From positions 359,573 through 423,572 of the forward strand of contig CANTFL010001448.1 in assembly GCA_947650285.1 (NCBI GenBank): a DNA stretch of 64,000 nucleotides, in the 5' to 3' direction. The notes under the pieces are model-generated. The model did no database searches and had not been told where the DNA came from. It saw only the letters and a list, made by a program, of their open reading frames with translations. Both the position numbers and the translations under genes were made by a program. The stretch is from Hyaloperonospora brassicae (Eukaryota > Oomycota > Peronosporomycetes > Peronosporales > Peronosporaceae). Shown one piece after another: positions 2,136 through 32,928 of this stretch; within the stretch, counting starts at the first letter, position 1, and each line of letters starts with the position of its first letter.

Positions 2136-2528
2136 TGTAACGGGGCACACCCTTGCGTGAACTTAACCCAGGGTTTGGGTGCCCCGACAGACGTACACGA
2201 GGCAAACGAGGAAGCGTAGATAAGGGAAAAGTAAAACTGTTGCATTAATATAATTCAGTCTTTCAACTACTATCTCTTTGTTTAACCTGACGTAATTATG
2301 TTAATATAACTGAGTGTATGGTGACGTCTCGTCACCACTCATTGCGCGCGTCCTGCGGCGATTGGTGGGTTGATAACGTCAAGATATCAACCAATGAGCA
2401 GACTCTTTGGTCGCCTCACCAATATCACCACTATCGATGATATTGTTCAAAGAATATTCAACTTCATATTCTTTATTGTCATTGTTTCTTTAAAGTGACA
2501 ATTCCATGTAACGGGCTGCCCCGTTACA
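2136..2528 (-). repeat. LTR of element 1 (3' LTR relative to element)
   Basis: Begins tgtaacgggg and ends ccccgttaca. It ends in a 9-bp stem/4-nt loop at 2507-2528. Internal hairpins include 2368-2375 with 2385-2392. It is the partner of 9737-10129. Confidence 0.93.
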
Positions 2529-2541
2529 TCACCCCCCTTGA
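2529..2541 (-). promoter_or_regulatory. Polypurine tract of element 1
   Basis: On the minus strand, aaggggggtga directly abuts the LTR. This is the position and composition expected for the plus-strand DNA primer of an LTR retrotransposon. The same arrangement occurs next to the LTR at 63498 and before the LTR at 32940. Confidence 0.7.
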
Positions 2542-2658
2542 CTGATAGTCACTGTGTGACTATCGAAATATGGCGGCCACCCGCTGGGCACCATTGGGAC
2601 AGGAAGCACTTGTTGGGTCAGTTCCGTTCATAACTCAACCTGACCTCGCATAGTTAAC

Positions 2659-3581
2659 ATGTCTATGCGGGGTGACTCAAGGCACACAGAGTCTGTGCCT
2701 GTGCCAGATTCTGCGGCAGACGATTCGTCGTCTGCTGCTCCTTCTTCGCCTGCAGCAAGCGGTTCTGCAGGTGCACGCGGTACAGCACCGCGTGCGCATG
2801 ATGACCCCGACATTGAAATCATCTACTCTGGCGAGTCAGACGTGTTTGACTCGGGCAATGTTGCAGAGGCGTCTCGATCACCGGCGACGCCTCAGTATTC
2901 GCCAAGGCCACTGAAGAACGAAGGACTCGTGAGTTGCAGCACAGTCTGTTCGGCAGTGATGACGAATCTGATGATGAGTATGTTTGCTCATCACCACGAT
3001 CAGCTCGTGCTTCTTGGCACGAGCGACTTGACGATGGTGCAAGCCATCATGATGCTGACAACCGTGGTATCGACAAGGGTACCACTTCGAAGCGTGATGA
3101 GATGAAGCCGTGGCGTTTGCCTGAACGGCTCATCAATAGCTTCTTTCACGAGACAAGCCAACACCATCGAATACCCTTATTCGATGCGACTGAGCTTCAA
3201 CGGCTTGGATCCCAGCGCGAGCAAATTTCGCGCTGAGGAAGACTTTTATCTCGATGTCTTCCCTAGACATCGATGGTACAATGGCATCCAAAAGCGTGAC
3301 AAGAACTCTCTTTTGGCTGCGTGGAACGCGTTCGTCCAAAACGTAAAGAATTTTGGACGAGAAGGGTGGCTTAAGAAAATTGAGGCAGTACGGCTTAGGT
3401 TCGAAAGGCGAACGCCAACCGATGCCAGGTACCGGTTTCATTGTTTATTAAGTGAGGCCGGCATTCCATGCCTCACTTGGGGAGACCCTTGTGCGAGTTG
3501 TGCCGACAACTCGCAACGTGCGCAGAGGGATGTGTATTCCCTCGATCTCGCCCTGGGGAAGGGCACACATCTCGGCTGAGA
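2659..3581 (+). pseudogene. Antisense gene of element 1 (unknown protein, two frameshifts)
   Basis: A plus-strand frame opens at ATG 2659, 130 bp inside the LTR, opposite to gag-pol. The N-terminus starts MSMRGDS and is acidic and Ser/Ala/Pro-rich, therefore probably disordered. About residue 87 a 1-nt deletion (near 2917, compared with the copy at 63622) moves the frame to one carrying LFGSDDESDDE and continuing to a stop near 3236. A second shift restores the first frame, which runs through FYLDVFPRHRWYNGIQKRDK to a stop at 3579-3581. Aligned with the copy at 63622, codons 4-7 (R-G-D-S) differ only at third positions, which supports real coding. The frame ends just before the chromodomain of pol ends at 3637, so the two genes converge. 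I do not recognise a domain. Confidence 0.6.
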
Positions 3582-3636
3582 TGCGTGATGCGATTGCAAA
3601 CTTGCAATCCGTCTGACAACCGCCAAAAGCGCGTGT

Positions 3637-5584
3637 TTACCGATGGTCCCTTGGACCAATCGGATGAGTCTCGTCATACTGGCGGACGAGACCTTCAACA
3701 TCCATCAACAGCTGAGAGCGGGGCTCCCAGCTGTTCCAAGAGGGTGGATACCCCCGCCACTGGACGAGGTAGCTCGTCCTTGATCCTGAATCGCCACGGT
3801 GATTCAAGATACGCTCCACTAGAAAGCGTTGATCACCGTGAGCATCCACCAAAGGATGTGGTGGAGGAGGAATAACCTCCTCCAGATGATTCGGTTCACC
3901 ATCTCGACCCTTACGAGATGGATCGCGCAATCGATGAATTGCGCGATGACTTGAAGCACGAGCGCGACCGGCGCTACACTTTGACCGATACCATGCGGAA
4001 GAACCGCAAGGATTGCGAGGCTGATCGGGCGAGAGACCGCGTCGATCACGCCACAACGCAGCTTCAGGTCGAGCGGGATGTCTTCTCCCTATTCGGCAAG
4101 CTGGCGACAGCTCGCGGGGAGATATCTCGGTTGAGTTCCAAGGTATCATATCTGCGCGACCAGACGGATCGTCTGGAGCGCGAACGCAAGAACCTTGATG
4201 GATGTTCTTGAACGTGGGGGCTATCTTCATCGGAAGAAGAAGGCTCGTACTGACAGTACGGCCTAAGCTTCCCCACGTAAAACGTAGGATGCGTGCGCAT
4301 CTTACGTGGCAATTCGATCGTGTATGAATTGCCCTTGCGGTGTAACACACGAAATAGGCCGATGTATTTTGGCAGTAGTAAACTACTGCCGACACTAGTG
4401 ACTGCATGTCCAGGTAAGTTTACCGTAGACAGTAGTAATAGGTCGTTAACCTTAAATGATAGAACATTTGCTCTTCCATTCTTGTCTGCGTTCCGTTTCT
4501 GACGGTCCACCGCAGTTGCGTTATGTCCTGAACGAAACCTACTACCGCCTCTCGAGCCATCAGGAAGGTATCTGATGATTCATTGTTGTGTCTTTCAGTG
4601 CGCTTCGTGCGCACTGCTAAGAGATCGTTCTCTATTTTCAACGAGGTTGTCTTCGTCCTCGATGGCGTAGTCGTTGACGATGCTGAATATACCAGCATCG
4701 TCATCATCATCCGAATCAATAATAGCGTCATCGCTATTATTGAGGTGATCTTCTTCACCGATGTCGACCTGATCGACATCGGCATCATAAGTGACGACGT
4801 TAGCGTCGACACGTGATGAGCAAGAGCCAAAACGGTTTTTGCTCGAGCGAGTCCCTCCCCCCTTATCCAAGAGTCACACTCTATAAGGGTGGGCACTCGT
4901 GGATGGCGTAGGCCATTCACGTAAAATGGTGTGTGCTGTGTGGAAGCATGCACCGAATTATTGATGGCGACTTCCACCATGGGTAGGAATTCGCTCCAAC
5001 TCGGAAACAAGTGGACATATCCTCGACGGATCTATTCGAGGACACGGTTCGCACGTTCCGTCTGACCATCTGTTTCTGGATGGTCTGAAGTGGACATCTT
5101 CAATCGTGTTCCGAGAGTACGGAACACGGTTTGCCAAAACTGCCGCCATGAACCGAGGGTCACGGTCGGATACGAGTTCACGGGGTAACCCGTGGAGTCT
5201 AAAGACCGTGTCTAGAAAGACACGAGCACAACCTTGAGCCTTGATCGACTCAGGGACTGCAGCAAGATGGACCTTCTTGCTGAATCGGTCAACAAACACA
5301 AGAATACCAATGTTCTTGTGAGCGTCGTCGGGAAACCCGAAGACGAAGTCCATGGAAACGGACTGCCAGCACTCTGTCGGAACAGGCAGAGGCTGCAATG
5401 GCGCACGGGATGAAGGACTAGGCTTCATCCGTTGACAAACCTCGCAAGCACGTATGTACTTGCGGACAAACTGATACTGGCGGGGCCAGTAAAAGTCACG
5501 ACTTACCGTTAGGTAAGTCTTTTCCCTTCCACGATGGCCGCTTGTTGGGGCATCGTGGCACTCATACATGATGCGCAAACGCAA
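3637..5584 (-). pseudogene. Integrase plus C-terminal chromodomain of element 1
   Basis: Integrase inserts the cDNA copy into the host genome. From 5584 the frame shows the HHCC zinc-binding module (H...GHRGREKTY...CEVCQRMKPS), then the catalytic Asp in SMDFVFGF and the second Asp in VSDRDPRF. The expected Glu region (GQTER-like) is reached only in another frame near 5010, so there is a frameshift there. The C-terminal part (KVNDLLLLSTVNLPG...YIGLFRVL...TFYVGKLRPY) lies at about 4510-4260. A chromodomain with YLVQWRGYPPSWNSWEP follows and ends at 3637. Chromodomains of this type steer chromoviruses to heterochromatin. Position and order are typical; the frame breaks make it inactive. Confidence 0.85.
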
Positions 5585-7302
5585 ATCATGATGAGCGAGT
5601 ACGACGACACGAGGCGTGTCACCGCAACAGCTGTATAGTACAGCAATCCGTTGCGTGTACTATGCCGATCCGATGAGGATCGGTACAAAGCCGGTAAATC
5701 CCTCATGGATTTACTGGATGGATTCACGAGATGATCCATCAATCGCAGAAGATCCTTATCTTCCGCGTATGCCTTTCGTACGTCGTCAAGTAAACTTGAC
5801 GACGGGACACTGACTGACAGTGTCGCAACAGTGGGCTTATCCTCACTGTTGAATTGTGCGTCCGCCTCGAAATCGGGCCGGCGCGAAAGCGCATCAGCGA
5901 CGACATTGACTCGTCCTGGTTTATACTCGACGGAGAAGTTGTACTCCGCGAAGAAAGACAGCCACCTCGCCATCTTTTGCGAGAGGTGTGGACTGTTTAC
6001 GGCCGTGCGTAGTGAAGCATGGTCCGTATAGACGATAAACGGTCTATCTCCCAAGAGATAGACCCGAAACTTAGCCAGTGCGTACTTCATGGCAAGGAGT
6101 TCCTTGTCATGCAATGGGCAATTGGATTCAGCTGACTGCAGCTGACGCGACTGATAACAGACGACGCGCTCCGCGCCATCTGCATCAAATTGCATTAACG
6201 CACAGCCGATTGCAAAATCGCTGGCGTCACAGACCACATGAAATAGTCTGTCCTGATCTGCAATCGCCAAGATCGGCGACTGCATCAAGCTTTGCTTGAT
6301 ACCTTCGAAGGAACGCTGACACTCAGCGTTCCATGACCATTTGACATTTTGCTTGAGTAACCAAGAAAGATGAACATTCATACCGGCGTAGTTGCGAAAG
6401 TACTTATTACAAGTACGCCGCTTGTCCAAGGAACTTCCTTAGTCCCTTGACATCGACTGGCACTGGCCAGTCGGTGATCGCCTTGATCTTTTCGGGATCA
6501 GGGCGTACGCCGTGTTTACCCACGATTCACCCAAGAGGTGGTATTTCGCTAGCCGCGAATATACACTTCTTGAGGTTTGCGTTCAACTTATGCTTGCGCA
6601 TAAGTTGAAGGACTTGACGAGCGTGAGTTCTGTGAGCTTCAACGTCCGTCTTTCCGTCCATAGCCCGGCTATGGACGAACACATCATCGAAGTAACTCGG
6701 TGCGAAGTCTCGCACCGGTCTCAACAGATTTGTAACACATCTGTTGAATGTTGCAGGGGCATTACTCAGTCCCTGTGGCATCACTAGCCACTCCCACAAC
6801 ATACCGCTGGGGGTGCTCACTGCTGTGTACGGGATGTCCCCTTCACGCATGAGGATCTGCTAGAATCCATCCATCAGATCCATGGACGAAAAGATGGTAC
6901 TCTTTGACATACCATCTATGATATGATTACGTCCTTCCTCGGTATCGGCGTCTGAGCCGGTACCGTTGCAGCATTCAACTTGTTAAACGCGTGCACTATC
7001 CGCCATCCTTCTATGTTCTTTCGCACACAGAAGGTCGGAATGCAGTGAGGGGATGTCGATTCCCTCACATGGCCCGCTGCTAAGCGATCGGTAAAGAACT
7101 TGTCGATCGCTATCACTTGTTCACGAGGCAGTGGCCACTGCTTCATGACACAGTACTTCGAGCCCGGTTTGAGCTCGATCTCGTGTCGAGTGCCTTTGTC
7201 CTTAGGCAACTCGCAAGGTACGTATTCAGGGAATACATCCTTGAATTCTATCAAATCCTTATACAAAGGATTTGCCTGAAGTGACTCCCAGGATTGAGAC
7301 GT
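5585..7302 (-). pseudogene. Reverse transcriptase and RNase H of element 1
   Basis: The RT copies element RNA to DNA and RNase H removes the RNA strand. From 7266 the frame reads VPCELPKDKGTRHEIEL...PLPREQ...PTFCVRKN...RIVHAFNKLNAAT, the usual finger region. A stop at about 6916 and frameshifts follow. The palm segment (WLVMPQGLSNAPATFNR, then YFDDVFVHS) at about 6780-6680 keeps an intact YxDD box. RNase H (from about 6240) has VVCDASDFAIG, KELLAMKYAL, YTDHASLRT and VVADALSRRP, covering the D-E-D-D positions. At least two frameshifts separate the pieces. DNA-level hairpins run through all of these conserved motifs. Confidence 0.88.
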
Positions 7303-8409
7303 CTATCGCTCAATCCAAGTCTTCTCATCGAGGACACTTTCGTCCATCGATGAGCTGCTGAGAACCCGTTCGTTCTCAGCAAATGCTGTTGCAGACCGAA
7401 TATCGGCCACACACTCGTCCTCTGTGACGAGTATGCAGATCTGCTTGACTTTGCCACTACGCAGATCACGCAAGAACCGTTTCGGTTCTAGCGTTGGCAA
7501 CTGAGTTATCTCCGAAGTCAACTTCGGAGGCACAATCAGATCAAGCGTATAAGCGCCTACGCTTGATCCGTCATTAACCAAGACGTTCAACGTCTCGGTT
7601 ACTTTCTAAGAACTTGCTTCCACAGGTTGCTGAGGGCCTAATCCTTCAGCAAGTGGATCTTGAGGAATTCCTTGCTCAAGTACGTGGGGACTTATTCCCT
7701 CGACGTCTTCCGACTGTGGCTGTGCAACCACAGTCAGGTACCGATTCTCTACGGTCGACTCTCCAGTCGACCTAGGACATTCGTGTTGCCCCTTGGGGGC
7801 AACAGGTTTCTTTTGTCTAAGATGCTGCCCGCTAGGCATGCATCCATGTCCCGGTCCACTCGACTTATTCGTGTGGTGGACCTTCGGCGCAGCCTGTACA
7901 TCTGTACAGCCGCCGGGAGCTTGCTCCACATTGTAGTGATCAACTACACTGTGATCTTGTGCAGTCGTGCTAACGACCGTACCGCAAGTGAGGCCATCGC
8001 ACTCACTCGCAGAACATCCACACGCTTGTGGACGCTCCAAGATGAACATCAGATGGCCATCTGATGAACAAGCGGCAGGCATCTTCACGGATCGATGCTG
8101 CCAGCTCACCCTTGGCTCGTATTTTCTGAGCCAAGGTAATCCCAGGATGACATCAAATTTGTCATCCAGATCTAGTACGATGAAATCATCATCGTACTGT
8201 TCGCCCTCCAACGTGTAGTGAATTCCTAATACACGTTTCTCAACAGTTATCGATGCGCCTGTTGCAAGGCGCACCGTCATCCTTCTGAGGGGAATGTCGC
8301 GCTCAACGAACTTGAGCCTACGACCCTCTAGTGACTGGCGACGAACAAAGTCGTTCGACGCCCCACAGTATACTAGGGCACGAAGCGACAAATCATTTGT
8401 CGCTTCCAA
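7303..8409 (-). pseudogene. Aspartic protease and linker to RT, element 1
   Basis: The retropepsin-type region normally reads ALVDCGAS. Here the frame at about 8370 reads ALVYCGAS, so the catalytic Asp is replaced by Tyr (TAC for GAC), which should abolish processing. Downstream FDVILGLPWLRKYEP at about 8150 is the usual flap/second-strand region of Gypsy proteases. The polar segment after it, to the stop at 7606, and the next frame (7590-7303) link to RT. A frame change separates protease from RT. Confidence 0.8.
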
Positions 8410-8537
8410 CTATAAGGTGATGAGCGAAACGTCATCACCAGGTGCAGAGACACACAATGATTGTGTATCTGGAGCAACTTCTGTCAAGAGATTTGCAAAT
8501 TCTCTTGAGGTTGCTGGATCAGTAGGGCGCTCCGCCC

Positions 8538-9692
8538 CTACTGACCTCGACCATTTTTTGATGGTCCGTTTCGCTGTTGCGGTTTCGCAACAGCGCTGGA
8601 CCCACGCCCATTGCGCTTTCTGGCAAATGGTCGTCCATTTCGCTCAGTACTGTTTGGTACTGGGCGTGGAGCACTACACTCATGTGCGAAGTGCCCTAAC
8701 TTCTGACAGCGATTGCACCTCTGCAATCGCTTGCTGTTTGAAGAGCGAGGTCTCTCGCTCTCAACATAGCAGAGATCCATTGGTTCTGGACCTCCACTCT
8801 CTTGTCGTCTCGGTGGAAGGTAAGAGTTTGAGCTAGCATGAGCCTGTCTCATGCTAAAGTCTTCCTGTTCCGTGGCTGATATCGCTTCCTCAAGCGTATT
8901 CAGCTCAAGGCGGAACAGATGGCTCCTGACGGGATCTTATGCGAGCCCTTGCATGAACACCGTAATCAACGTGTGTTCATGAACTGAGTTAGCAGTTATA
9001 CTACTCGCGAGGAGTCGTATATGTTGTGCGTAAGCGTGCACATCACGCTTACCCTGCTTGAGTTTCAGGAGCTCTGAACGAGCCCTGAACTCAGCTCGTG
9101 GCGGCTCAAACGTTTGTCTGATCCGGGCCTTGAAGTCATCTAGCGACCTAAACACATTTGGGTCGCTACTCTCGAGCCACAAAGACCAAGTTTTAGTACT
9201 TCCTGCCAAGTGGGTTTGAGCAAATGAAGCTCACATTTGCTCATCTTCGACGCGACGAGCCCTTAGGGCTCTGTCGAGTTCGACAAACCACAGTAACAGG
9301 GAGTCCTCCGGGACTCCACTATACTTGGAGATGTCAACCTCCATGACCTCGGGACGACGCGCATGTGCCGTCCCGCCCACAGCAGCATGGAATTGCTGCT
9401 GTCTCAACAGCTCTGTCTGTTGAGCACCGAGTTCTCTCAACTGCTTGGCCTGTTGAGAGCCTTGCTGGTGAAGCAAGGCTACTTTTTCCCTTTCGGCGAC
9501 AAGTTAACTTTGGATGAACTTGGCTATAGCGGCATGTTGTTGGTCTCTGTCTAGAGACTCCAACATGGCGCTAATGGCGAACTCGCCTACGGTAGAACTC
9601 ATTTGTTCTACCGCACCCCATTCGATGTCACTCAAATGGGTAAACCCTTCACGCGTGGCGTAAAAGGTCTCTTCATCATCCAACATGTTCAT
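8538..9692 (-). pseudogene. gag of element 1 with CCHC zinc knuckle
   Basis: Gag forms the virus-like particle. One reading frame runs from ATG 9692 to 8538 and is interrupted by in-frame stops at about 9504, 9231 and 8937. Each piece continues the same protein, so these are point nonsense mutations rather than frameshifts. Features in order: a Gln-rich stretch (QQGSQQAKQLRELGAQQTEL), a retrotransposon-gag core (WSLWLESSDP...FKARIRQTFEPP), and a zinc knuckle CNRCQKLGHFAHEC (CX2CX4HX4C) followed by a basic Arg/Asn tail. The start lies 44 nt inside the 5' LTR. Confidence 0.85.
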
Positions 9693-9719
9693 GTTGGATG
9701 CTGTGGTCCTTGAAAGGAC

Positions 9720-9736
9720 TACAAAGTGCTACCAGG
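9720..9736 (-). promoter_or_regulatory. Primer-binding-like site of element 1
   Basis: On the minus strand, tggtagcact lies 2 nt inside the 5' LTR. The same tggtagcact follows the 5' LTR of element 2 at 26406. TGGTAGC... is the form expected for a primer tRNA ending GCUACCA, as initiator tRNA-Met does. The tRNA identity is inferred. Confidence 0.6.
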
Positions 9737-10129
9737 TGTAATGGGGCACACCCTTGCGTGAACTTAACTCAGGGTTTGGGTGCCCCGACAGACGTACACG
9801 AGGCAAACGAGGAAGCGTAGATAAGGGAAAAGTAAAACTGTTGCATTAATATAATTCAGTCTTTCAACTACTATCTCTTTGTTTAACCTGACGTAATTAT
9901 GTTAATATAACTGAGTGTATGGTGACGTCTCGTCACCACTCATTGCGCGCATCCTGCGGCGATTGGTGGGTTGATAACGTCAAGATATCAACCAATGAGC
10001 AGACCCTTTGGTCGCTTCACCGATATCACCACTATCGATGATATTGTTCAAAGAATATTCAACTTCATATTCTTTATTGTCATTGTTTCTTTAAAGTGAC
10101 AATTCCATGTAACGGGCTGCCCCGTTATA
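9737..10129 (-). repeat. LTR of element 1 (5' LTR relative to element)
   Basis: 393 bp, about 98% identical to 2136-2528. The outer terminus has decayed from ...ccgttaca to ...ccgttata. It sits directly on the edge of the right inverted-repeat arm and truncates the symporter relic there. Confidence 0.93.
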
Positions 10130-11643
10130 AATACGACACCGTCGAACATGGAGTTGAACATCATTGTCAGGCGGCTGCTGGCAATTATTGCATCTGCCTT
10201 TGTTTTTAGCACGTTGCTGAGCATCGCTGCCTTTTCACTGCCACTTGGCGCAATGCTGGCCTACAGTTTCGACGAACCTGCGAGTCTGAATCTACTGCTG
10301 TAGCTTTTCCTTGAGGTGAACGAGACACCCGCGCACGTGGCGCACTACATCCTCCGCTTCACAATCGTTGCCATATTTAGTTTGCTTGCTGGCTTGCTAG
10401 CTATCTCATTGGACGAGTCGGTCGCAGTCCAGCCTCTGAAGTTGGTTCTGATCGTGGTGACCACTCTGGTTGTGACCGGGCTCATCCATATGCTCGTGAT
10501 TGTGCCTGCACTCTTCCTGATCATTACACGCCGGAACTCGTTCTCCTTCATGCTCCAGATGCTTCATGTGCGCGTGTATACCATGGGCTGTTCGTCGTCA
10601 ATGGCGACAATGCCGCTGATTCTCCAGTGCATGTAACCGTCCCGTGAAGGTGCAAACTTGATCATGCGCTTTGTCATGTCAGTGAGCATATCGCTTCACA
10701 TGCTCGGCATCTCTATCTACCTAGCTATGCCGGCGCACTATACGACGGATGTAGCTGGTGTCGATCACGCCAGTCCGTTTCGACGAAGTTGGTGCGTTTA
10801 TCGGCGTCTTGTTCGTCATTAGTAAACTATTAGTCATGTCTGCCTTTTTTAAAGAAGTCCAGAAGCCGGCAGAACCTACGATCAATCATTGTCACTTATC
10901 CTACATCAAAATCGCACATCGCTCCGGGTGGTGCCGTTGGTATCCATTTTTATTGCCTATCAGCAGAGGGCGACTCTTTGCATCATTATTTTTGCAACTT
11001 TTATTGAACCGCGGTCAGATGTATCCATAACTATCCAACCTATTTGATTTTGAGCGTAACCCCATCCGTAGACATAGCAATTTCTCGCAGTATTGCCAGA
11101 TGCTGATTCACCCCTTCTACAAATACATTTATTCTCGAGGACATACTTTGAAACTTTACGAAAGGATTTCTCAATACTTTGAGGCCTAAATTTGTCAATA
11201 TCGACACCCGAATACATCCTAGTCTGCGTTTATACCACGCCCTGACGATATCGATGTCCATAAACGATGTCTAACAGCATTGATCACTTCGCCGATCGTA
11301 TCTGGCTATCGATCGTTCATTTCCTTCCTCGTATCCACAATGAAACATACGACTGATATTGGCCATCGTAGAGCTTTACCATTTGTACGATCTCCTTCGG
11401 TCATTCTTTCCTCATCAGATCGCGAGGTGGCTTCCTCCGGTTGTTAAACGTTACCTCAGCTTATTTCCCCATACGAGTTATAACCTTCGTCGTTGTGTGA
11501 CATGATGAGCTAATTATATGTGGGTAGCCTCTTCTTCCGGCAATTCTTCCTTTCGGTTAGCGATTTTTTCAAATACCAGGGTCTATTTATTATTGTAACG
11601 ACGCGGTCCTACTGAGACAAATCCGGGCAATCTTGATCTTTAT
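10130..11643. repeat. Right arm of the ~1.5 kb inverted repeat
   Basis: Reverse complement of 1-1514. It starts immediately after the LTR. The sequence after 11643 has no counterpart in the window because the left arm reaches the window edge. Confidence 0.9.
10148..10770 (+). pseudogene. Degenerate EAAT/SDF-family symporter relic, right copy
   Basis: An ATG at 10148 opens a short membrane segment (IVRRLLAIIASAFVFSTLL) that stops near 10303. The main piece 10316-10636 carries LVVTGLIHMLVIVPALFLI, ITRRNSFSF and GCSSSMATMPL, the order found in sodium:dicarboxylate symporters. After the stop at 10636 the RFVMSVSISLHM block follows without an NMDGT motif. The N-terminal part is missing because the LTR sits at 10129. 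It shares all disablements with the left copy, so the gene was dead before duplication. Confidence 0.7.
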
Positions 11644-17234: not shown

Positions 17235-17768
17235 TGTAACGCGTTTACACGTCGACTGGTAGTCGACCATAGGTGTGGTGCCCACAAGGGATGGGATCCC
17301 CTTTAAAGTAATATTAGAACTTAATTATCAATTGTTGAAGATTGATGTCTGTCAATTTTTGATTACGAGATCTTTAGATAGGTTCATTTAGGACATAAGC
17401 GAGTAGGTTAATTACTTTGTTCTCCGGTGTTCTTTTAGGTTAAAAGAAGAAATAAAGTTCAGTTCCCATTTTGATACGATAGACACGTGCCTCTCTGAGT
17501 CGTCTTGCGATCATTGGAGGAGACTAGCAACGCCTTGTTAAGGCAGCTACTCCTTGTGCACTCAGTGCGTTTGATTCTCTGAATCGTTTGGTCCCCCTGG
17601 AACAGGGACCGTAAGCTCTCTGAGCTTGTTGACTCTTTGAGTCGGATTCTATGAACCAAACCTTAGCTCTCGGAGCTGTTGACTCTCGGAGACGGGTTCT
17701 TTAAACCAAAGTTGCTCGTTGAGCGTTAAGTCTTCCTCTGACTTGAGGAGCTGTGTAGCTCCGCTACA
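17235..17768 (+). repeat. Solo LTR A of the element-2 family, with 5-bp TSD
   Basis: 534 bp, starts tgtaac and ends ccgctaca. It is flanked on both sides by TATGT (17230-17234 and 17769-17773), a perfect 5-bp target-site duplication. It is therefore a complete solo LTR left by recombination of a full element. It is the ancestral left end of the tandem array. Confidence 0.88.
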
Positions 17769-20119
17769 TATGTCGCACACGAAACACCGGTTCACGCACT
17801 CGCCATTGATTTGGACTCTTAATAAATTCTTAACCGTAGAGCAAGATGCACTCCCGATAGGAATATCCGCTTCTTTTCTTAACGATCGAGGTACATTTCA
17901 CTCGCTATTTGTCTCTATCATTAGCCTCAATCCGTTTCCGCGCATTGAACCCGCCGCGAATATCTACCCGCTTTTTGTTCATTGCCAAAGATCTTAACTA
18001 TCATACCGCGGGCTGTCGCTGCCGTTAGCGAAAACAGATTATTGCTGAGGTCCTGCTCTTGTAGCGCGTTTCTAGCCGTGCGAAACCCAAATGATAATAT
18101 TTCGAACCCGAAACACCAATGTGTCTTGTCCGAGTGCATTTAAATGCGAATTGATCATTGGTCTTAGCACGTTACGTCCCAGAGTTTAGACATAAGCGCG
18201 GTGTCGTTGTTTGAAATCATAACATGCTTAAGATCAGGAAGATGGAAATGGTGGGAAAATGGTGGAGAAAGGAGTAAAGCCAAAAGTAAGTTATAGGTTT
18301 GTGTTTGTTTTATCCTTTCGGTACCATAATTCATTCTTCCCAACAGCTTCCTATATGTAGATCCCTCGTTACATCCCACGTCGCACTCCCTTTCTCTTTA
18401 TACTTCTTTCCCTTTTCTATGTAGAGTTTAGTCAAAAATGTGGGGGACGTCACTGCCTGGTAGGTCAGAGCTGAAACCGAAAGACCAGAATCGAACATAT
18501 TACTATAAGCCTGCCGGTGTCAAACCGATGACCTACAGATTATTAAAGACATTCTTTTCACTTAATCTACCTTTTCGTAGCAAATGTAAACTACAACTTG
18601 TATCTTCCGATCTCAAATACGTCGTACTCTGGCACAGACACTCACACACCCTTACGCGCATGCGTACATGAGAATCACGCTACGGCGATATGCACGATCC
18701 GCATCACCATCTATCAAAGCAATGATTCCCATGTACCCGATGAGTGCTTATGATGCGCGTCGATATGTACGAATTGCTCGTCGAGTCTTACGAAAAAAGC
18801 GTTGGCCAATTAATTGCTGTACTTTATAGGAGGAGGCTAGTCATGGGACTAGGCGCTCGGTCGAAGTTCGTCGGTCTCAGGCTTGGGAGGTTGAATTACC
18901 CCAGCAGTGCATCTGAGACCCTTCAGGCTAACAATAGTGAAGATATACGTGGTAACATTAGTACTTGTTGCTCCGTAGATATAAATGTCAGTGTTGTATC
19001 GGCACTAACACCCTAACGTTGATCAGGCTTCTGACACAGATTATTAGCTGATCTACCAAGGTCGACAAAATATGACGCCTCGCCTGACGAGGGCACTACC
19101 GCAAGCGCAGAGATGCGCGAAAAATCATATTATGGGTGTCTTACAAGCTCCCAATTACGCAGGATAGGTGCGTTTAATATATATATACAATATATATATA
19201 TATATATATGACAAAATCTCGCGCGACCGTCCGGATCCTATTTGACACAATTTTACCATCTCAAATCTACAAAATAAACTCATAGATTACTAGGTTTAAA
19301 TGGATTGACATGAACAATTGTTCGCCTACGAATTGCTTGCGTTTGCGTTTTCGACGTCAAAAACAGCAGTTGAGTCATCGCCATCATTCCGTGTGATCGA
19401 TTGCGATTGCTTTATCTTGACTTGTTTCGGCAAGAATGTCTCTTGAAGCTGAACAGGATGTCATCGTATCGTGATGCTGGTCCGCATTCTGTAATAAGTT
19501 CCAGGATTCCGCTACGAGCGAGCAACTTGTTTAGCCTAAACCCGCCTACGAAAGTGCGTCAATAGGCGATTAAACGGAAACCCACATGCTGATTGTTATC
19601 GCGGATAAGACCATGTCACTTGGAGATCATCGATGGGACGACGAAACGGGTCCGACACGTCCATTTCACCTGGTCCGAATACTAGCAATATATTGAAGGA
19701 ATTCAATAAGCACTAGATCCACGTTATCCCGGTCTGAGCTTTACTCTGCGAGTCAACACCTCATCCTGCGCAACGTACTTTACCAGAAAATGCTACTAAA
19801 AGTATTAAGTAGAGCACAAGTCGGGTAGATCATCATTGCAATTCTTCGCCCAATTACTTTCCGCAACAAGTCGAAATGCTAGAGTGCACAGACGAAGCTG
19901 TTATGCGCCCGACATATTTAATCAATATTGCTGCCCGAAGCTTGCGCAGGGCTTTTTGTCAAAAGATCATCTATAAACGGCATGGCATACTACACGTCGC
20001 CCTTCAGTGCATTTCCTTCTTTTATTCGTTAAACATTATAAATGAAGCGCCATTCTATATCGGTATTGTTGCAGCCCTGATGCCTATGGTAGCTGCGAGA
20101 AAAAAAGTTATGCATCTAC

Positions 20120-22058: not shown

Positions 22059-22090
<32 letters not shown>

Positions 22091-26464: not shown

Positions 26465-27499
26465 ATGGAGTAATCCACACCCATCACTGAGGCCCAAAAG
26501 GTCGCGCTTGATAAGCTGACCGCGGCCGTGGGCCCAGAATATGTGGAGTATCTAGGTGCGCAAGGTCCCGATGTGCTAAATGCACGAGTCGAGACCTTCA
26601 TGCAGTATGAAACGGCCCTGTTGGGCCAGGTTCAAAACCGAACAGCGTCGGCTATGCCGACAAGCTACGTAGCTATGCCACCAGAAGAGGCTAAGCCTCG
26701 TCCCCTTCGAGTGGACGTTAAACATTACTCCGGGAAGGAGGGGAAAAATTTGAATCTCTGGATCCGTGAGATTGAGATGGCCATGGACTCTGGTCTCATC
26801 TCACTTGAGAACCAGCGGGTCTCGTTGGCTCTTTTAAGCTCTATGGAAGAGCTAGAGAGTGGGCTTTGACGTGTGGCACGTCGGTCAACTTGGCATTTCC
26901 CACGTGGGAATCGCTCAAGCTAGACCTATTGCGAGTTTTCTCGCCGCCTAACCAGGCATATTGCGTGCGCTCACGCCTCTTGTCCACCCGTTTGGGTAAG
27001 AGCGAGTTAACGGACTATGTCCAAGAGTTGAGAACTCTAATGGCTGCTATGCAGTCTGACCCTCTCCCTGAGACTGTCTACGTGACAGTCTTCATGGAAG
27101 GTCTCCGCACTGGCGTGGCCAGAACCGAGGTTTTTCGGTTTCATCCCTCTACTTTTGAGGAATCTGTGCGCGTCGCTCAAAATGCCGAGCACAACTTCAA
27201 GTCGGCCAGACTTGGTTGGAATGGGTACAACCCAAGCTTTGTGAAGGCAACCTCTGCGAGCACCTCGGCTTATTGTAAGCCAGAACCGGTGGATCTCAGC
27301 CATGCTGAAGATGAAGGCGAAGCGGAGCTTCATGTTGCGGAGCAACGGCAGGACGTGGGACGCTGTTACATGTGCGGAAGCACTAAACACTTGCGTCCCA
27401 CTCGACCTTTGCGTAAGCAACGAACGACTCCTACGTTTCGAAACCCCATCCTCAACCAGAAACCTGGTATGGCACGGGGAAACGTCGACACCCAGTAGG
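26465..27499 (+). pseudogene. gag of element 2
   Basis: The likely start is ATG 26465 (ATG-GAG-TAA): the third codon is already a stop, after which the same frame reads ITEAQKVALDKLTAAVGPEY. The gag core follows (HYSGKEGKNLNLWIREIEMA). A frameshift near 26866 leads into FPTWESLKLDLLRVFSPPNQ and YVQELRTLMAAMQ, which end in a damaged zinc knuckle: CYMCGSTKHLRPT keeps CX2C and His but lacks the last Cys. Role as in element 1: particle assembly and RNA packaging. Confidence 0.82.
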
Positions 27500-28826
27500 T
27501 GCGGGGCGCCCTACTGGGGTAGAGCTTAGTTCTGTCACTTCTCTTCGAGGTAGAGTGAAACAAGTGTTAGCCCCACTGAGCTCTGTGCCCGCCAGCACAG
27601 AGCGTGGATACAAGCCTGGATTGTTAGTCGCCGAGGCGACAGTGAGAGGCTTTGAGAAGCATTGGTCGATTTTGATCGATTCAGGAGCATCATGCAATCA
27701 TGCTCAACGTCGTTCCCTTGAGGGAAGTCAGCGATACGCTGAAGCGCTCAAAGCGCATAAAGGTGATTCGATCACCGTTCTTTTAGCGACCGGCAGTCGC
27801 GTCACGGTACCTAAAGATCCGTTGAACTTGGGTGTAAAGTTTTTGGACTTTGATAGCATTGAACGCTGTCTTGTCCTCGATTTTGATTCGAGATGTGATC
27901 TCATATTAAGTATAGCTCGGCTTGAACGCCATGAGCCATGGATTGATTGGAGGCCTAAGCTTTTAGTGGCCACGCGCATTGTTCCTATCGAAGCTTTGGA
28001 GAGTCATGAACCCACCTTCGCTAGGCAACAAAAGCGCTATTGGCGCGAGTCATTGATGGAAGATGTCAATGTGCTGGACATTGGTATGTCAGAGTTAATT
28101 CACTCCAATGTCAATGACATTAAAGTTGAGCGGAGCTCATTCACCGTATGCGAATGGAGTTGTACTCCGTTGAGTGATACTCATTGTGATAATGAGTCAC
28201 TGCATGCTGCAGGCATGGTTGGCCTAGGGAAGAGAAATCAAGAATGTAATTTCTCTGATGTGAGTGGGGTGGCACCTGAAATTGCACCGAATGAGGGCGG
28301 CCGAGGTGGCACCTCACTGAATGTCGCTAATGACGTTGATGGCGAGAAGCCAGAGCGTTCAGGGCTAGGCCCGGATGCTATACGTGAAGTGGTACGTGAA
28401 AATCCACTGGGTGAAGTATTCGAGTTACGTAACACTTCACCAGATTTCGTTCAATACATGAGCTCTCGTATAGAGCGTGCTATAGCAATTAGCAACCACA
28501 GGGACCCTGCTGTCCCGGCCTCTAGGAGGCACAAATATTCCCTGAGGAAACAATCCCAGCGTCGGGTGGAAACTGCTAAGCGCCCAACGTCTACGAAGTC
28601 ACGAAGTGATAATAGTAATAAAACACTATATACACTTGTCAATGGATTGTCTGGCCATGTTGATGGCAATATTAGTTTTGAGACTCTTCCATATTTAAAT
28701 AATCTCTTTGAACTAGACGAAATGTATGACGGCAAATTTAGCCAAGCCTTACAGGCAGGAGAATCATCCGAGTTGGTGGTCATTCGGCCGGATATTGAGT
28801 TGAACACATCCTCGTTATTGGACTAG
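27500..28826 (+). pseudogene. Protease region of element 2
   Basis: A long frame (open to 28826) includes LIDSGASCNHA, the retropepsin active-site motif with its Asp intact. FDSRCDLILSIARLERHEPW matches the downstream FDxILGxPWL region, with Gly-Leu-Pro lost. A long low-complexity polar segment without recognised motifs runs from about residue 150 to the end. Protease would cut the gag-pol polyprotein. No ATG opens the frame, which is expected for a polyprotein segment; a stop separates it from gag. Confidence 0.75.
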
Positions 28827-29860
28827 TCTGTCCTTGAGGACACGAAGGCGGCATTGGATGCCCGCAGTGGATATTCGATCCCTAAGGATCCTCTTGATCC
28901 GTTCTATCTTTTGTTAAAGAGTTTCAGGACGTGGTGTGTCACAACCCCCGTCCATCTTACCTCCTGACAGAGGTGTACGTCATGAAATTGACTTGGTTCC
29001 TGGAACTAAATACTGTGTAACACGGCAGTAGACTTTGCCGAAAGAACACTGTGACGTCATTGACGACTTCTTTTGTGCAAACACGCGGCAGGAATGGTAC
29101 GTGAGAGCAAATCTTCTCATTCCACGCCCGCATTTTGTGTCTGAAAGCCCAACGGAAAGTGGCGCATTGTTCATGCTTACAATAAGCTTAATGCTGCCAC
29201 GATCCCGGCTTAGACACCAATCCCTAGGAAAGATGCCCTTCAGAACAACATGGTGGGATGTACAATGTACAGTGCACTCGACTTAGTCGATGGTTATTAC
29301 CAATTGCTCATGCGTGAGAACGATATTCCGCTGACAGCGGTTAGTACCTCGAGCGGTATGCTCTGGGAGTGGCTAGTCATGCCACAGGGCTTGTCAAACG
29401 CCCCAGCTACATTCAATCGTCTTGTGACACAAATGTTCAGACCTCACCGAAGATATGCACAGACGTACTATGATAGCATATTTGTCCATAGTCGTGCTAT
29501 GAACGGTCGGTCGGTCGGATGTGTACAATCACATTGCCAATTTACGAGCGGTGCTTGAGTGCATCCGCACGAATAAGTTGTACTCCAACGCGTCTAAGTG
29601 CATATTTGGTGCAAAAAAGATTTCCTTTTTAGAGTGCTTTTTGGTAAGCGAGGCCTTAGAGCGGATCTCGCTAAGGTGAAATCCATAGTCGATTGGCCGG
29701 TTCTTAACAACCAAAAGGACTTACGTAAGTGGATTGGCCTTGCCAATTACATACACAAGTACAGTGCGAATTACGCAGACATGGCTCGGCCATCATCCAA
29801 TCTCTTTAAAAAGGATGTGGAATGGTGCTGAACTAGAACCTAGCATGATGCTTTTAAGCA
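28827..29860 (+). pseudogene. Reverse transcriptase of element 2
   Basis: The start region RGVRHEIDLVPGTKYC is followed by a stop. Palm motifs DLVDGYYQLLM and WLVMPQGLSNAPATFNR are clear at 29280-29430. The catalytic box reads YYDSIFVHS instead of YFDDIFVHS, so the second catalytic Asp is Ser. A frameshift near 29500 precedes the thumb/connection region (KSIVDWPVLNNQKDLRKWIG, 29690-29750), which ends at a stop near 29829. Confidence 0.85.
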
Positions 29861-29890
29861 GTAAAGGAGAGTCTTCTTCATGCGCCAATC

Positions 29891-31129
29891 TTGGATTTGC
29901 CTGATCCTGATCGATCTTTCAGTGTCGTCTGTGACGCATCTGACTTTGCCATAGGCAGCGCTCTGTTACAAACAGATTCTGGTGGACAGGAACGCGTCAT
30001 TGAGTTTGAGTCTCGGCAGCTGAAAGCAGCTGAAAAGAACTACCCAGTTCATGACAAAGAGCTACTTGCAATGAAGTATGCTCTCGTCAAATTCAGAGCT
30101 CATCTGCTTGGCTCCAAGACGTTTGTGATCTATACAGATCATGCTTCATTACGCACTGCGACCCAGTTGCCTCACCTCTCTCAGAGAATGGCTCGTTGGC
30201 TTTCCTTCTTTGCGGAATACAACTTCGAGGTGAAGTATAAGCCGAACAAGCAGAATGCTTTGGCTGATGCGTTGTCCCGCAGGCCTGACTATGAGCTTGC
30301 TCATGTTACGACTCTGTCGTCGTCGGTCACCGACCTAATCCGTACGGCATATGCCAAGGATGAAAACTGTGTAGCTTTGCTACGTGCTCTGGGGAGCGAG
30401 GAGTTTAAGGACTCAGACATTATATTGTCAGCACGTTTACGTGCAAGGCTACATCGATATTCCCTCGATCAAGGCCTGTTGTGCTATAGCACTGATGTGG
30501 AGGATATTCCTCGTATCGTTGTCCCTCATGGTGAGGAGTTGGAGTATCGGATCCTCTATGAGGCACATGAAACTGCGTTGAGTGGTCATCTCGGTCGTGA
30601 GAAGACATATGGCTCAGTTAGCCAATGCTGTTGGTGGCCCAAATTATACAAATGGATGAGCACATACGTGCGTACGTGCGAAACGTGTCAACGGGTGAAA
30701 CCCTCAGCTCATGCGGCTGCGCCGCTCGCTAGTCTTCCTATACCCTCTGGGTGCTGGGAGTCTATCAGCATGATTTTTCTGTTCGGGTTGCCGAAGGATT
30801 CGTATGGAAATACGGGTACCGTGTCCATTGTTGACCGTTTGAGCAAGATGGCTCACTTAGCGGTGGTGCCGGATACCATTAATGGTGAAGGTACAGCGAC
30901 GCTGTTTATCGATCGGTTTTTTAACAACATGGTTTGCCACTGGCAATTATCTCTGATAGAGATCCTCGCTTCACTGGGAAGTTTTGGAAATCCATCTTCA
31001 AGGTGCTCAGCACACGTTTGGACATGTCCACGGCGGATCATTTGCAGACAGATAGTCAAATTGAGCGCGTTAATCGCGTCATCTGTGATATCTTGCGCAG
31101 CGTTTGAGCTGAAACGCCTAAGCGTTTAG
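29891..31129 (+). pseudogene. RNase H and integrase N-terminal/core of element 2
   Basis: RNase H motifs are in order: VVCDASDFAIG, KELLAMKYAL, YTDHASLRT and ALADALSRRP. The integrase zinc module follows (HETALSGHLGREKTY...CETCQRVKPS). The first catalytic site reads MIFLFGLP where MDFVFGLP is normal, so the Asp is lost. After FNNMVCHWQ a frameshift destroys the SDRDPRF site, although remnants of it and of the TDSQIERVNR block are visible in another frame (about 30950-31080). Clearly inactive. Confidence 0.85.
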
Positions 31130-31970
31130 AGCTCGATTCTCCCTTTTGTATAGTTTGCGTTGAAGAACGCCGTGCATACCTCCACAGGCTATACACCGTT
31201 CTACGTGCCCGGTCTCACACACCCTCGCGTTCCGTTAGCGCTACCACTACGTGGTTCAGGGCTTGAGGGGAGAGGAGTTGCCGATCGGCTTGCTGGTATC
31301 AGCCCTGCTACTGTTCAAAAATAGGTAAGCGAGTTTCTTGCAACGATATTGAATATGTTACGACACGTACGTGACGCACTGGCTGATATACAAGTCAAAC
31401 AGAAAGAACAAGCTGATGCTAAACGCAGAGGTTGTAGTGAACGTTACGAGGTCGGAGACCAAGTTTTACATAATGCTAAAAATCTACCTACAAATTTAGT
31501 GTCTGCTGTCCTTAAGACAAAGTTGCGCCCGCGCTTCATTAGACCATTCACGGTCGTCGCCAAGAAGGGAATTGCGTATACGCTCAACCTTTCGCGCAAA
31601 CTGCGCACACACCAAGTATTCTACTTGGGCTTGCTTAAGCCGTATCAGGATCCGTCTCACGTAAACTTGGAGGAGCTTGCGCCGCGTAGGTTGGCCTTTC
31701 CATCGGTTGCTGGATCCGTATCAGGAGTTTAAGCTGAGCCTCCATCCGGGTTTGACCCAACTCTACGCCTGAAGGCGAGCTTTTGTCGCGTCGAGCGCAT
31801 TCTAGGTCTTACCCAAGGTCCCGCGGAGATAGATTACTCCGCGACGAAGCTCCTCAAGTTCGTCCCTCGGTTTAACGACAGAGAATACCCGTAGTCTTAG
31901 AACTCATGGGAGTTCGAGATACTCCTTCGGCAGGATTGCCCATATGCCTTGGATGTTTTTGAACATCGTG
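31130..31970 (+). pseudogene. Integrase C-terminus and degenerate chromodomain of element 2
   Basis: From 31349: YEVGDQVLHNAKNL, RPRFIRPFTVVAKKGIAYTL and HQVFYLGLLKPYQ are the GPF/Y-like integrase tail. After a stop at 31730 a weak chromodomain remains (FCRVERILGL..., then SWEFEILLRQDCPYALDVFE near 31910). It has lost the central LVKWRGY block. It converges with the minus-strand frame that starts at 32771. Confidence 0.7.
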
Positions 31971-32771
31971 TCAAGGGTCATCCTGTGACCGAAGTCGCTT
32001 CTCACCCATAGTGGTGGAAGTAGGTGGGTAGTTGGGTACCGCTTGACCAGCCCTCACCTCAGTCGGCACAGCCGGAGCATAGCGTGTGCGAGCCCGCAAC
32101 TGGCCTCTGGCCTTAAGCTTGGCGTAATTATAGCGCAGCTTTCGTTCTAGACGAACGTCTGGTACATTGGCACTTGCTCTTAGAGCGAACATGCTGGTGA
32201 AGTGCCGTTTCCGATGCACCCAGCGAACAAAAGCGTTGTCCTCTTCCTCTTAAGATTCGCCTGCGAATAAGAGAATGAGCATAGCCTTCATCGGTGGAAC
32301 CGGTGCACCCCGTGCTTGCGTGTCAATTCGCAACTTGTATTGACTTTGAGTCGTAAAGAAAGATTCCAAGCACCTCTCGCGAAGTGCTTGGCGACTCGCA
32401 ACCTCATCAGAGGATGACGGCATAGCGCCGATGGTCCACGTTGCTAAAGAACGACCCGTCGTTTGGCATATACGTTCTCCCAAACCGAGTGGATCGAACA
32501 AATAGTCACGACGTCCCTCAAGGGTTGCAGCAAGCTGCATACGGAGCTGAGCGCTCTCCTCGTGATGGAGTGCTAGTTGTTGTTGCTCATCGAGCGGATT
32601 GGTGATAATTGCATCGCCCACAAGGGGTATTTGATGCGGCGCCAGTGGCGCATTGGCTTCTCCACGCTCGGCAAATGGGTTTGGTACAGTATGAGGCCGT
32701 GCCTCTTCCATCTGTGAGTAGGATGTTGTCGTTTCTTCACCAGGGACATTGGTAACACTACCATAGTCCAC
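31971..32771 (-). pseudogene. Antisense gene of element 2 (unknown protein, one in-frame break)
   Basis: A minus-strand frame opens at ATG 32771, about 170 bp inside the 3' LTR, and runs to a stop at 32250. A second basic frame, 32219-31971, apparently continues the same protein after a disruption. Visible features: acidic/Gln-rich N-terminal half (NPLDEQQQLALHHEESAQLR), a helical region with ESFFTTQSQYKLRIDTQARG, and a strongly basic C-terminal half (VRLERKLRYNYAKLKARGQL). Position and orientation match the antisense genes of elements 1 and 3, but I cannot align the proteins by eye. No known domain recognised. Confidence 0.55.
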
Positions 32772-32928
32772 CGCCTCTTCAATGACGAGGTACGATAAAG
32801 AGTTTAGGACTCATGGGGTAGCGATGCCATGGTGGTTCGTGTTTTGAAAGAACCGTAAGGTTGAAGCGCACACACACCAACCTCTTCGAGGAAAGACTTC
32901 TATTGACGTTTGAGATAACGTCAGTCTG

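What the first reader, a model, noticed from the sequence alone, without database searches (positions are those of the whole stretch)
2136..10129. A whole retrotransposon built as a chain of short perfect hairpins
Reading element 1, nearly every 30-60 bp holds a local inverted repeat with a small loop, in LTRs, gag, RT, integrase and the antisense gene. Examples: 6582-6593/6598-6609 (12-bp stem, 4-nt loop), 6041-6050/6055-6064 (10 bp, 4), 6310-6319/6323-6332 (10 bp, 3), 5781-5790/5795-5804 (10 bp, 4), 5105-5113/5120-5128 (9 bp, 6), 5500-5507/5512-5519 (8 bp, 4), 4371-4378/4383-4390 (8 bp, 4), 3922-3930/3939-3947 (9 bp, 8), 2507-2515/2520-2528 (9 bp, 4). My rough estimate for random DNA is about 8000 x 8 / 4^10, or 0.06, stems of 10 bp with loops of about 3-10 nt in the whole element; four lie within 830 bp. 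They sit inside conserved pol coding, so codon choice must have bent to the pairing. Possible causes: reverse-transcriptase template switching that perfects quasi-palindromes, selection for structured genomic RNA, or dsRNA that affects silencing.
Basis: partly seen in the sequence, partly recalled or inferred. Interest (0 to 1): 0.88.

Follow-up and report, generated by a model that had tools for sequence, protein, structure and literature searches.

The report
Retrotransposon written as hairpin chains
A family of jumping genes in a downy-mildew-like microbe is spelled, from end to end, so that each strand folds into about a hundred small perfect hairpins, and evolution keeps the hairpins even where the letters are otherwise free to change; what the folding is for is not yet known.

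Summary
All nine quoted hairpins are exact. The element at 2136-10129 holds 76 perfect stems of at least 8 bp with loops of 3-12 nt, against 1.0 in dinucleotide shuffles; host DNA at 41-57 kb has 3 against 3.3. It is an aged copy of a Ty3/gypsy chromovirus. A young copy (L061, identical LTRs) has 107; its pol has 52 against 1.0 in 200 synonymous-codon shuffles. Stems cluster at 8-10 bp. A sister subfamily keeps many hairpins, with compensatory changes; fourfold sites change at 6% in stems, 24% outside. Among copies, single-copy variants at fourfold sites are equally frequent in stems and outside (.418.413), but variants in five or more copies are not (.030.164): selection, not a mutational habit. 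Folding excess is equal on both strands (48%), with no G-U preference. A related family, also in this window at 26-33 kb, uses another size: 5-bp stems with 3-5-nt loops. A more distant gypsy family, three Copia stretches and host genes are near chance. Function is inferred: perhaps keeping strands from annealing or from small-RNA guides.

The parts
2136..10129 (-). Ty3/gypsy chromovirus copy (subfamily A), 7994 bp, written as a chain of 8-10-bp hairpins; coding strand is -
   Evidence: 92.3% identical over 8.0 kb to the young copy L061
9737..10129 (-). 5' LTR (relative to the - strand element)
   Evidence: direct repeat; 98.5% identical to the other LTR over 391 columns
2136..2528 (-). 3' LTR; contains stems of >=8 bp starting at 2319, 2368, 2420, 2449 and 2506
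8538..8852 (-). gag piece with CCHC zinc knuckle (frame broken in this copy)
4687..8643 (-). pol, broken into several frames: protease, RT, RNase H, integrase
   Evidence: tblastn of L061 pol; Pfam RVP_2, RVT_1, RT_RNaseH, Integrase_H2C2, rve (rve 31.2 bits, just under its cut-off of 32.6)
3637..4407 (-). chromodomain piece
   Evidence: Pfam PF00385, E 2.6e-13
2659..3875 (+). antisense open frames (148, 131 and 135 aa among others); in L061 one antisense frame of 539 aa, no Pfam match
6582..6609 (.). example hairpin: 12-bp stem, 4-nt loop, inside the RVT_1-matching frame
6041..6064 (.). example hairpin: 10-bp stem, 4-nt loop, inside the RNase H-matching frame
6310..6332 (.). example hairpin: 10-bp stem, 3-nt loop
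5781..5804 (.). example hairpin: 10-bp stem, 4-nt loop; the same arms in L061 (position 4319) hold one compensated pair in subfamily B
2506..2529 (.). LTR-terminal hairpin: 10-bp stem, 4-nt loop
3922..3947 (.). example hairpin: 10-bp stem, 6-nt loop
63199..64000 (.). end piece (LTR plus internal sequence) of a sister-subfamily (B) copy cut by the contig end; 7 stems of >=8 bp
26800..32800 (+). copy of a related gypsy family (C) with another hairpin size: 67 stems of 5 bp with 3-5-nt loops against 12.8 expected; borders approximate

Best explanation
Layer 1 (shown; I hold it at about 0.85): a clade of Ty3/gypsy chromoviruses in this genome has been under purifying selection for self-folding. 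Each lineage encodes a chain of short, perfectly Watson-Crick hairpins over the whole element, by synonymous codon choice in genes and directly in the LTRs, in a size class typical of the family (8-10 bp in A and B, 5 bp in C). Selection sees both strands alike. Layer 2 (inferred, about 0.35): the folding keeps sense and antisense strands from annealing to each other and from pairing with small-RNA guides, so that element transcripts make poor Dicer substrates and poor Argonaute targets. Stems stay at or below about one helical turn, so the hairpins themselves are not long dsRNA. The confidence below is for both layers together.
For: Excess: 107 stems against 1.07 (L061), 76 against 1.0 (window copy), pol 52 against 1.0 in codon shuffles. 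Stem lengths in L061 have a second mode at 8-10 bp (33, 35 and 26 hairpins of 8, 9 and 10 bp; 8 of 11; 2 of 12), where host and Copia DNA fall off steadily from 5 bp. Longer stems are less GC-rich (60% at 8 bp, 41% at 11 bp; r=-0.38, 0 of 5000 permutations), as if stability were the target. Compensation: of 849 L061 stem pairs readable where both B copies agree, 24 change on both sides to another Watson-Crick pair and 8 to a non-pair; with the partner slid, the first number is 2, 8, 3, 3 and 5. Constraint between subfamilies: fourfold sites in pol 8/134 in stems, 11/29 in loops, 74/311 outside (stem vs outside p=2e-6). Constraint among 55 A copies at fourfold sites of pol: single-copy variants .418 per site in stems and .413 outside; variants in >=5 copies 4 on 134 sites in stems, 49 on 298 outside (p=1.5e-4), 11 on 36 in loops. 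LTR stems change less than the rest of the LTR (17/111 vs 57/233 in the 5' LTR, p=.07; 14/105 vs 63/228 in the 3' LTR, p=.005). Both strands: folding-energy excess 47.7% sense, 48.5% antisense over 52 windows, paired p=0.75; one-sided stem changes G-U 22 vs A-C 18 between subfamilies, 31 vs 25 among variants in >=2 A rows. Real loops: the ends of 3-nt loops are complementary in 20 of 68, 8 of 44 (C) and 2 of 17 (A1) cases, about the chance quarter, so loop-less palindromes are not what is kept. Family C: 101 short hairpins in its open frame against 17.3 in 200 codon shuffles (maximum 34); fourfold sites 26/173 in stems vs 125/464 outside in the 89%-identical L069 (p=.0016). For layer 2: in Phytophthora infestans, 21- and 25/26-nt small RNAs map along gypsy elements in both orientations (PMC3522703, passages).
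Against: No small-RNA, transcript or probing data for this organism were available, so layer 2 is untested. Hairpins of >=7 bp cover only 37% of L061, so much of the strand is unpaired by this measure. One-sided mismatches (68) outnumber compensated pairs (24) between subfamilies, and in several of the 16 hairpins with a compensated pair (355, 1148, 5383 in L061) B no longer has a full stem, so hairpins are also lost or gained. Variants in 2-4 copies are only mildly rarer in stems (fourfold .164 vs .238, p=.17). The two LTRs are copies of each other, so their tests must not be pooled (the pooled p overstates). In the window's C copy double changes to Watson-Crick number 2, no more than slid controls (0-2), though L069 shows 6 against 0-2. 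5-bp stems with 3-nt loops are weak and would resist annealing poorly. A more distant gypsy family and three Copia stretches in the same genome lack the trait, so evasion is not a general need. Equal G-U and A-C is also what a DNA-level function would give.
Confidence: 0.35

Rival explanations
1. The hairpins serve a DNA step: single-stranded cDNA (minus or plus strand) must fold during or after reverse transcription, for protection, compaction or ordered synthesis. Because G-T and A-C both disrupt DNA stems, no strand preference is expected.
For: Strand symmetry and no G-U preference; hairpins cover LTRs and all genes alike; family C's 5-bp hairpins are mostly closed by a 5'-pyrimidine/3'-purine pair, 70 of 93, and prefer 3-nt loops.
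Against: Family A does not share that closing-pair preference (G-C and A-T closures 61 of 104); no known step of Ty3 cDNA synthesis asks for genome-wide hairpins (recalled).
Confidence: 0.25
2. Sense-strand RNA function: compaction or many dispersed Gag-binding stem-loops that help packaging; size classes follow each family's Gag.
For: Family-specific hairpin size; all 20 A1 windows are over-folded (z below -2); the likely PBS and PPT lie between hairpins, though 63% of the element does.
Against: No loop or stem sequence motif seen (by inspection); the antisense strand folds equally and G-U is not preferred.
Confidence: 0.15
3. Mutational: the element's reverse transcriptase folds back and copies one arm from the other, with a tract length typical of the enzyme (5 bp in C, 9 bp in A); selection on proteins only filters the results.
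For: Perfect Watson-Crick stems, strand symmetry, a family-specific size and no motif are all natural for a copying mechanism; compensated pairs would be its signature. Fourfold sites in stems mostly pair with coding-constrained positions, so some slowing there is expected under copying too.
Against: At fourfold sites single-copy variants are no rarer or commoner in stems, while variants in >=5 copies are depleted. Noncoding LTR stems show 1 compensated pair and 3 uncompensated double changes against 17 one-sided changes over both LTRs, whereas correction would give mostly compensated doubles. Density is not clearly higher in LTRs than in genes.
Confidence: 0.1
4. Chance, base composition or assembly artefact.
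For: None found.
Against: Dinucleotide and codon shuffles; the trait recurs in all 60 fetched A loci at 5.4-13.0 stems per kb, at least ten of the first 30 having open frames of 1339 aa or more; it ends at element borders.
Confidence: 0.005

Closest known systems
[quoted passage not shown]
   Same: Consecutive stem-loops through the whole genome, in coding sequence, measured as excess folding energy over shuffles; linked there to persistence and escape from RNA sensing (PMC7642675 and PMC3950689, passages).
   Different: Excess here averages about 48% over the element, against genome means of 7.5-10.7% for HCV, about 15% for SARS-CoV-2 (with a local peak above 50% in ORF3a) and 23.4% for the highest vertebrate RNA virus named in PMC7642675 (window size and programs differ). 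Here the host is a retrotransposon, both strands fold equally, hairpins have a family-typical size, and many positions are conserved with compensation, where PMC7642675 reports poor conservation of position.
Ty3/gypsy chromoviruses of oomycetes (named relatives in Peronospora effusa, Globisporangium and Phytophthora)
   Same: Gag, protease-RT-RNase H-integrase order, chromodomain, LTRs beginning TG and ending CA.
   Different: I found no report of hairpin chains in them in ten searches (listed in Tried and rejected); no DNA of relatives in other species could be read here, so whether they share it is open.
Dispersed packaging signals of small RNA viruses
   Same: Many stem-loops spread over the genome (recalled).
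   Different: Those share a loop or stem motif read by coat protein (recalled); none seen here.

Membership tests
Ty3/gypsy chromovirus | pol order protease-RT-RNase H-integrase | tested here: met
   L061 pol, 1338 aa: RVP_2 86-188, RVT_1 540-705, RT_RNaseH 794-899, Integrase_H2C2 1017-1074, rve 1093-1186
Ty3/gypsy chromovirus | chromodomain downstream of integrase | tested here: met
   PF00385 in the frame 5250-6482 of L061 (E 2.4e-13) and window 3637-4407; in L061 it lies in a frame that overlaps the end of pol, not in the pol frame itself
Ty3/gypsy chromovirus | LTRs with TG...CA ends, primer-binding site and polypurine tract | tested here: met
   L061 LTR starts TGTAACGGGG and ends CCCCGTTACA; TGGTAGCA... 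2 nt after the 5' LTR; G-rich purine tract at the 3' LTR. PBS and PPT were read by eye; the priming tRNA was not sought
GORS | genome-wide excess folding energy above 3% | tested here: met
   47.7% and 48.5% in A1; 17.0% and 20.5% in C; threshold from PMC3950689. Controls: Copia L062 2.5/3.1%, L064 3.3/5.9%, family D 3.3/0.4% and 1.7/-0.8%
GORS | positive-strand RNA virus genome | tested here: not met
   an LTR retrotransposon integrated in DNA
GORS | folding conserved but pairing positions not | tested here: not met
   of 849 L061 stem pairs readable where both B copies agree, 749 are identical and 24 compensated; 249 further pairs were gaps or disagreements
Dispersed packaging signals | shared sequence motif in loops or stems | tested here: not met
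   no common loop among 104 A hairpins or 116 C hairpins (by inspection of counts, no motif program)
Dispersed packaging signals | binding by capsid protein | not testable with these tools
   needs CLIP or binding assays

The most novel reading that the evidence does not exclude
A clade of retrotransposons writes its entire genome in a fixed-size, strand-symmetric hairpin code, with the size differing between families, as a physical shield that stops its two strands, or guide RNAs, from pairing with it. That would be a protein-free counter-defence against RNA silencing built into the nucleotide sequence itself.
Probability: 0.3. Interest if true: 0.92.

Novelty: new variant of a known kind. 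Interest (0 to 1): 0.83.

Why it matters
Genome-wide RNA structure is known from RNA viruses, where its purpose is unsettled and pairing positions drift. Here an LTR retrotransposon shows an average excess two to six times the genome means quoted for structured viruses, with selection at synonymous sites, conserved positions, covariation and a measurable hairpin size that differs between related families. This makes the question of what genome-wide folding is for directly testable, with Copia and another gypsy family in the same nucleus as built-in controls. If the silencing reading holds, it is a way for a mobile element to resist RNA interference without a suppressor protein.

Tried and rejected
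Chance and composition: rejected by dinucleotide shuffles (30 per region) and 200 codon shuffles each for A pol and the C frame. General property of the genome or of retrotransposons: rejected; host 41-57 kb, three Copia stretches (L062-L064) and two loci of gypsy family D (L070, L071; 33-34% identical to A pol in the RT region) have hairpin counts at chance. RNA-only selection: tested by wobble asymmetry three ways, none showed a clear G-U excess in A; in C, G-U exceeds A-C (20 vs 12 in L069, 30 vs 14 in the window copy), but slid controls lean the same way (G-U/A-C sums 23/13 and 45/30 over three slides), so I do not count it. Loop-less palindromes: one search showed some stems with loops of 0-2 nt (in C 14, 30 and 18 against about 4 by chance); one search shows that they are about what chance complementarity of the ends of 3-nt loops gives. 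Sequence motif in loops: none seen. I first took family C as lacking the trait (3 stems of >=8 bp); looking at shorter stems showed it has its own size class. Relatives outside this genome: two viral-contig scans and one genome-contig scan confirmed no relative; metagenome scans were capped at 0. Papers: ten searches (open-access library only) listed no report of hairpin chains in retrotransposons, judged by titles and abstract openings.

Limits: loci L001-L060 are not 60 independent copies; at least five were cut twice (L003/L049, L004/L048, L007/L052, L008/L050, L011/L051). In one search (56 distinct rows, all codon positions) these were not removed unless identical; one search repeats the test without the five second cuts (55 copies) and at fourfold sites. 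B copies are aged and broken; only columns where both agree were used, and 249 of 1098 pairs were set aside. L001 is the window copy and L017 is L061 itself.
Full report
WHAT IS THERE. The window is G000:C856:359573-423572 of a 100.6-Mb genome. The nearest named relative of the element's pol is from Peronospora effusa (85% identity over 93% of the query), so the host is probably a downy mildew; this is inferred from the element alone. The element at 2136-10129 has LTRs of 393 bp (98.5% identical) and, on the - strand, pieces of gag, protease, RT, RNase H, integrase and a chromodomain. Its frames are broken. A young copy, L061, has LTRs identical over 390 bp, a 396-aa gag frame, a 1338-aa pol, a 411-aa frame with chromodomain, and an antisense frame of 539 aa with no Pfam match. 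The genome search scored 129 matches out of 5700 candidates (a lower bound on copies), most of them at about 92% amino-acid identity to residues 7-270 of the query and many in frames open for 600-1666 aa.

THE HAIRPINS ARE REAL. All nine quoted stems are exact. Counting every maximal perfect stem of >=8 bp with a loop of 3-12 nt gives 76 in the window element and 107 in L061; dinucleotide shuffles give 1.0 and 1.07. The host stretch 41-57 kb has 3 against 3.3. Pol of L061 has 52 against 1.0 in 200 synonymous-codon shuffles. All 60 fetched A loci carry 5.4-13.0 stems per kb, median 11.8 (at least five loci are second cuts of the same copy). Density in L061 is similar in the LTRs (15.4 and 12.8 per kb), gag (12.0), pol (12.8), the chromodomain part (11.5) and the antisense-ORF part (14.2). 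The likely primer-binding site and polypurine tract sit between hairpins, apart from one base; since most of the element is outside hairpins this is weak evidence.

ANATOMY. In L061 non-overlapping hairpins number 48, 33, 21, 33, 35, 26, 8 and 2 for stems of 5 to 12 bp; Copia DNA (12.9 kb) gives 76, 22, 3, 1 and host DNA (16 kb) 87, 26, 9, 2, 1 from 5 bp up. So there is a separate class of about 9 bp with a sharp upper end. Loops are mostly 3-6 nt. GC falls from 60% in 8-bp stems to 41% in 11-bp stems (r=-0.38, 0 of 5000 permutations), and loops shorten (r=-0.23, p=0.005), which suggests that a stability range is selected; total hairpin length peaks at 23-24 nt, 45 of 125. No loop motif is seen.

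SELECTION. Subfamily B (L065, L067; 80.6 and 82.0% identical to L061, LTR pairs 97.3-97.4% identical, frames broken) has 56 and 62 stems. Scoring the L061 hairpins (>=7 bp) on B where both B copies agree: 749 pairs unchanged, 24 changed on both sides to another Watson-Crick pair, 8 on both sides to a non-pair, 22 one-sided to G-U, 18 to A-C, 28 to others; 249 set aside. Sliding the partner gives 2, 8, 3, 3 and 5 double changes to Watson-Crick. Sixteen hairpins of >=8 bp show compensated pairs; in some (355, 1148, 5383) B has lost the full stem and the double change may be chance. Fourfold sites of pol: 8/134 changed in stems, 11/29 in loops, 74/311 outside. Each LTR by itself: 17/111 vs 57/233 (p=.07) and 14/105 vs 63/228 (p=.005). 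Among 55 A copies, fourfold sites of pol carry single-copy variants at .418 per site in stems and .413 outside, but variants in >=5 copies at .030 (4 on 134 sites).164 (49 on 298) and, in loops.306 (11 on 36); the 2-4-copy class differs little (.164.238; p=.17). Over all codon positions the same holds (.321 vs .361 single.024 vs .055 in >=5). Codon registers that let synonymous sites take part in two thirds of pairs are used 25 and 24 times, the third 9 times (p=0.016). In C this register bias is absent (40, 39, 35). Together these say that replication filters out broken stems in A and that mutation supply does not explain them.

BOTH STRANDS. MFE excess over shuffles is 47.7% for sense and 48.5% for antisense (52 windows of 200 nt, paired p=0.75). 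G-U and A-C mismatches inside stems are equally common (12 vs 11 in L061; 10 vs 11, 8 vs 11, 7 vs 8 in the other three copies). A structure needed only in the sense RNA should tolerate G-U. So the selected thing is either DNA, or RNA of both strands, or a duplex that must be perfectly Watson-Crick.

A SECOND SIZE CLASS. Family C (L066, open frame of 1606 aa, 56% identical to A in pol) has few long stems, but 100 stems of exactly 5 bp with loops of 3-5 nt against 12.5 expected, and 20 of 6 bp against 2.8; 56 of 116 non-overlapping hairpins are 5 bp with a 3-nt loop. Its open frame has 101 such hairpins against 17.3 in codon shuffles. Two more C copies show 86 against 9.8 and 87 against 10.2 (L068 is 99% identical to L066, so it is hardly independent), and the C copy in this window (26.8-32.8 kb) 67 against 12.8. 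C stems are also conserved: fourfold 26/173 against 125/464 in L069 (p=.0016), with 6 compensated double changes against 0-2 in slid controls; the window C copy shows lower stem divergence too (.074 vs .116) but no excess of compensation (2 against 0-2). Family D, a gypsy family 33-34% identical to A pol in the RT region (two loci), and Copia (three stretches) have hairpin counts at chance. On this sample the trait belongs to the A/B/C clade, and its hairpin size changed within it.

HOW IT MAY WORK. Shown: selection for local self-folding on both strands, with family-typical hairpin size. Inferred: the benefit. I favour escape from RNA silencing. In Phytophthora infestans 21- and 25/26-nt small RNAs map along gypsy elements in both orientations (PMC3522703, passages seen), and Dicer-like proteins localise to the nucleus in Phytophthora (PMC4791657, passages seen). 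Strands that fold at once into hairpins should anneal slowly with each other and with guides, and stems shorter than about one helical turn should not themselves feed Dicer (general knowledge, recalled). The weak hairpins of family C and the absence in D and Copia count against this being a simple or general need. A function in cDNA is the main rival.

COMPARISON. The closest known thing is genome-scale ordered RNA structure of RNA viruses (PMC7642675 and PMC3950689, passages seen), with HCV at 7.5-10.7%, SARS-CoV-2 at about 15% and a maximum of 23.4% among vertebrate RNA viruses in PMC7642675 (genome means; single genes can peak higher). This works like GORS but is not filed as GORS: it is not an RNA virus, and positions are conserved. 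Ten searches of the open-access library listed no report of hairpin chains in LTR retrotransposons (titles and abstract openings); subscription papers were not searched.

Noticed in passing
1-1514 and 10130-11643: The element lies between two arms of a 99% inverted repeat carrying a sodium:dicarboxylate symporter piece (PF00375, searched for the left arm only); the right arm starts at the very LTR end, and no 5-bp target duplication is visible (left GGTTC, right AATAC), so the insertion was rearranged or the assembly is folded here.
   Followed up: partly
1660-1718: A single 25-bp perfect stem with a 9-nt loop in the spacer between the left arm and the element, much longer than the element's own hairpins.
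   Followed up: no
17482-26297: Four pieces about 2.88 kb apart, each 86-89% identical to part of the 3' flank of L061, look like a tandem array; short C-like hairpins rise to 8-11 per kb in parts of it.
   Followed up: no
L061:5860-7476 (- strand); window 2659-3875 (+): An antisense frame of 539 aa over the 3' part of the element, no Pfam match; it may be a real gene or follow from the strand symmetry of the sequence.
   Followed up: partly
L066 hairpins: Family C hairpins of 5 bp (loops 3-5) are closed by a 5'-pyrimidine/3'-purine pair in 70 of 93 cases; family A shows the opposite, weaker lean, 61 of 104.
   Followed up: no
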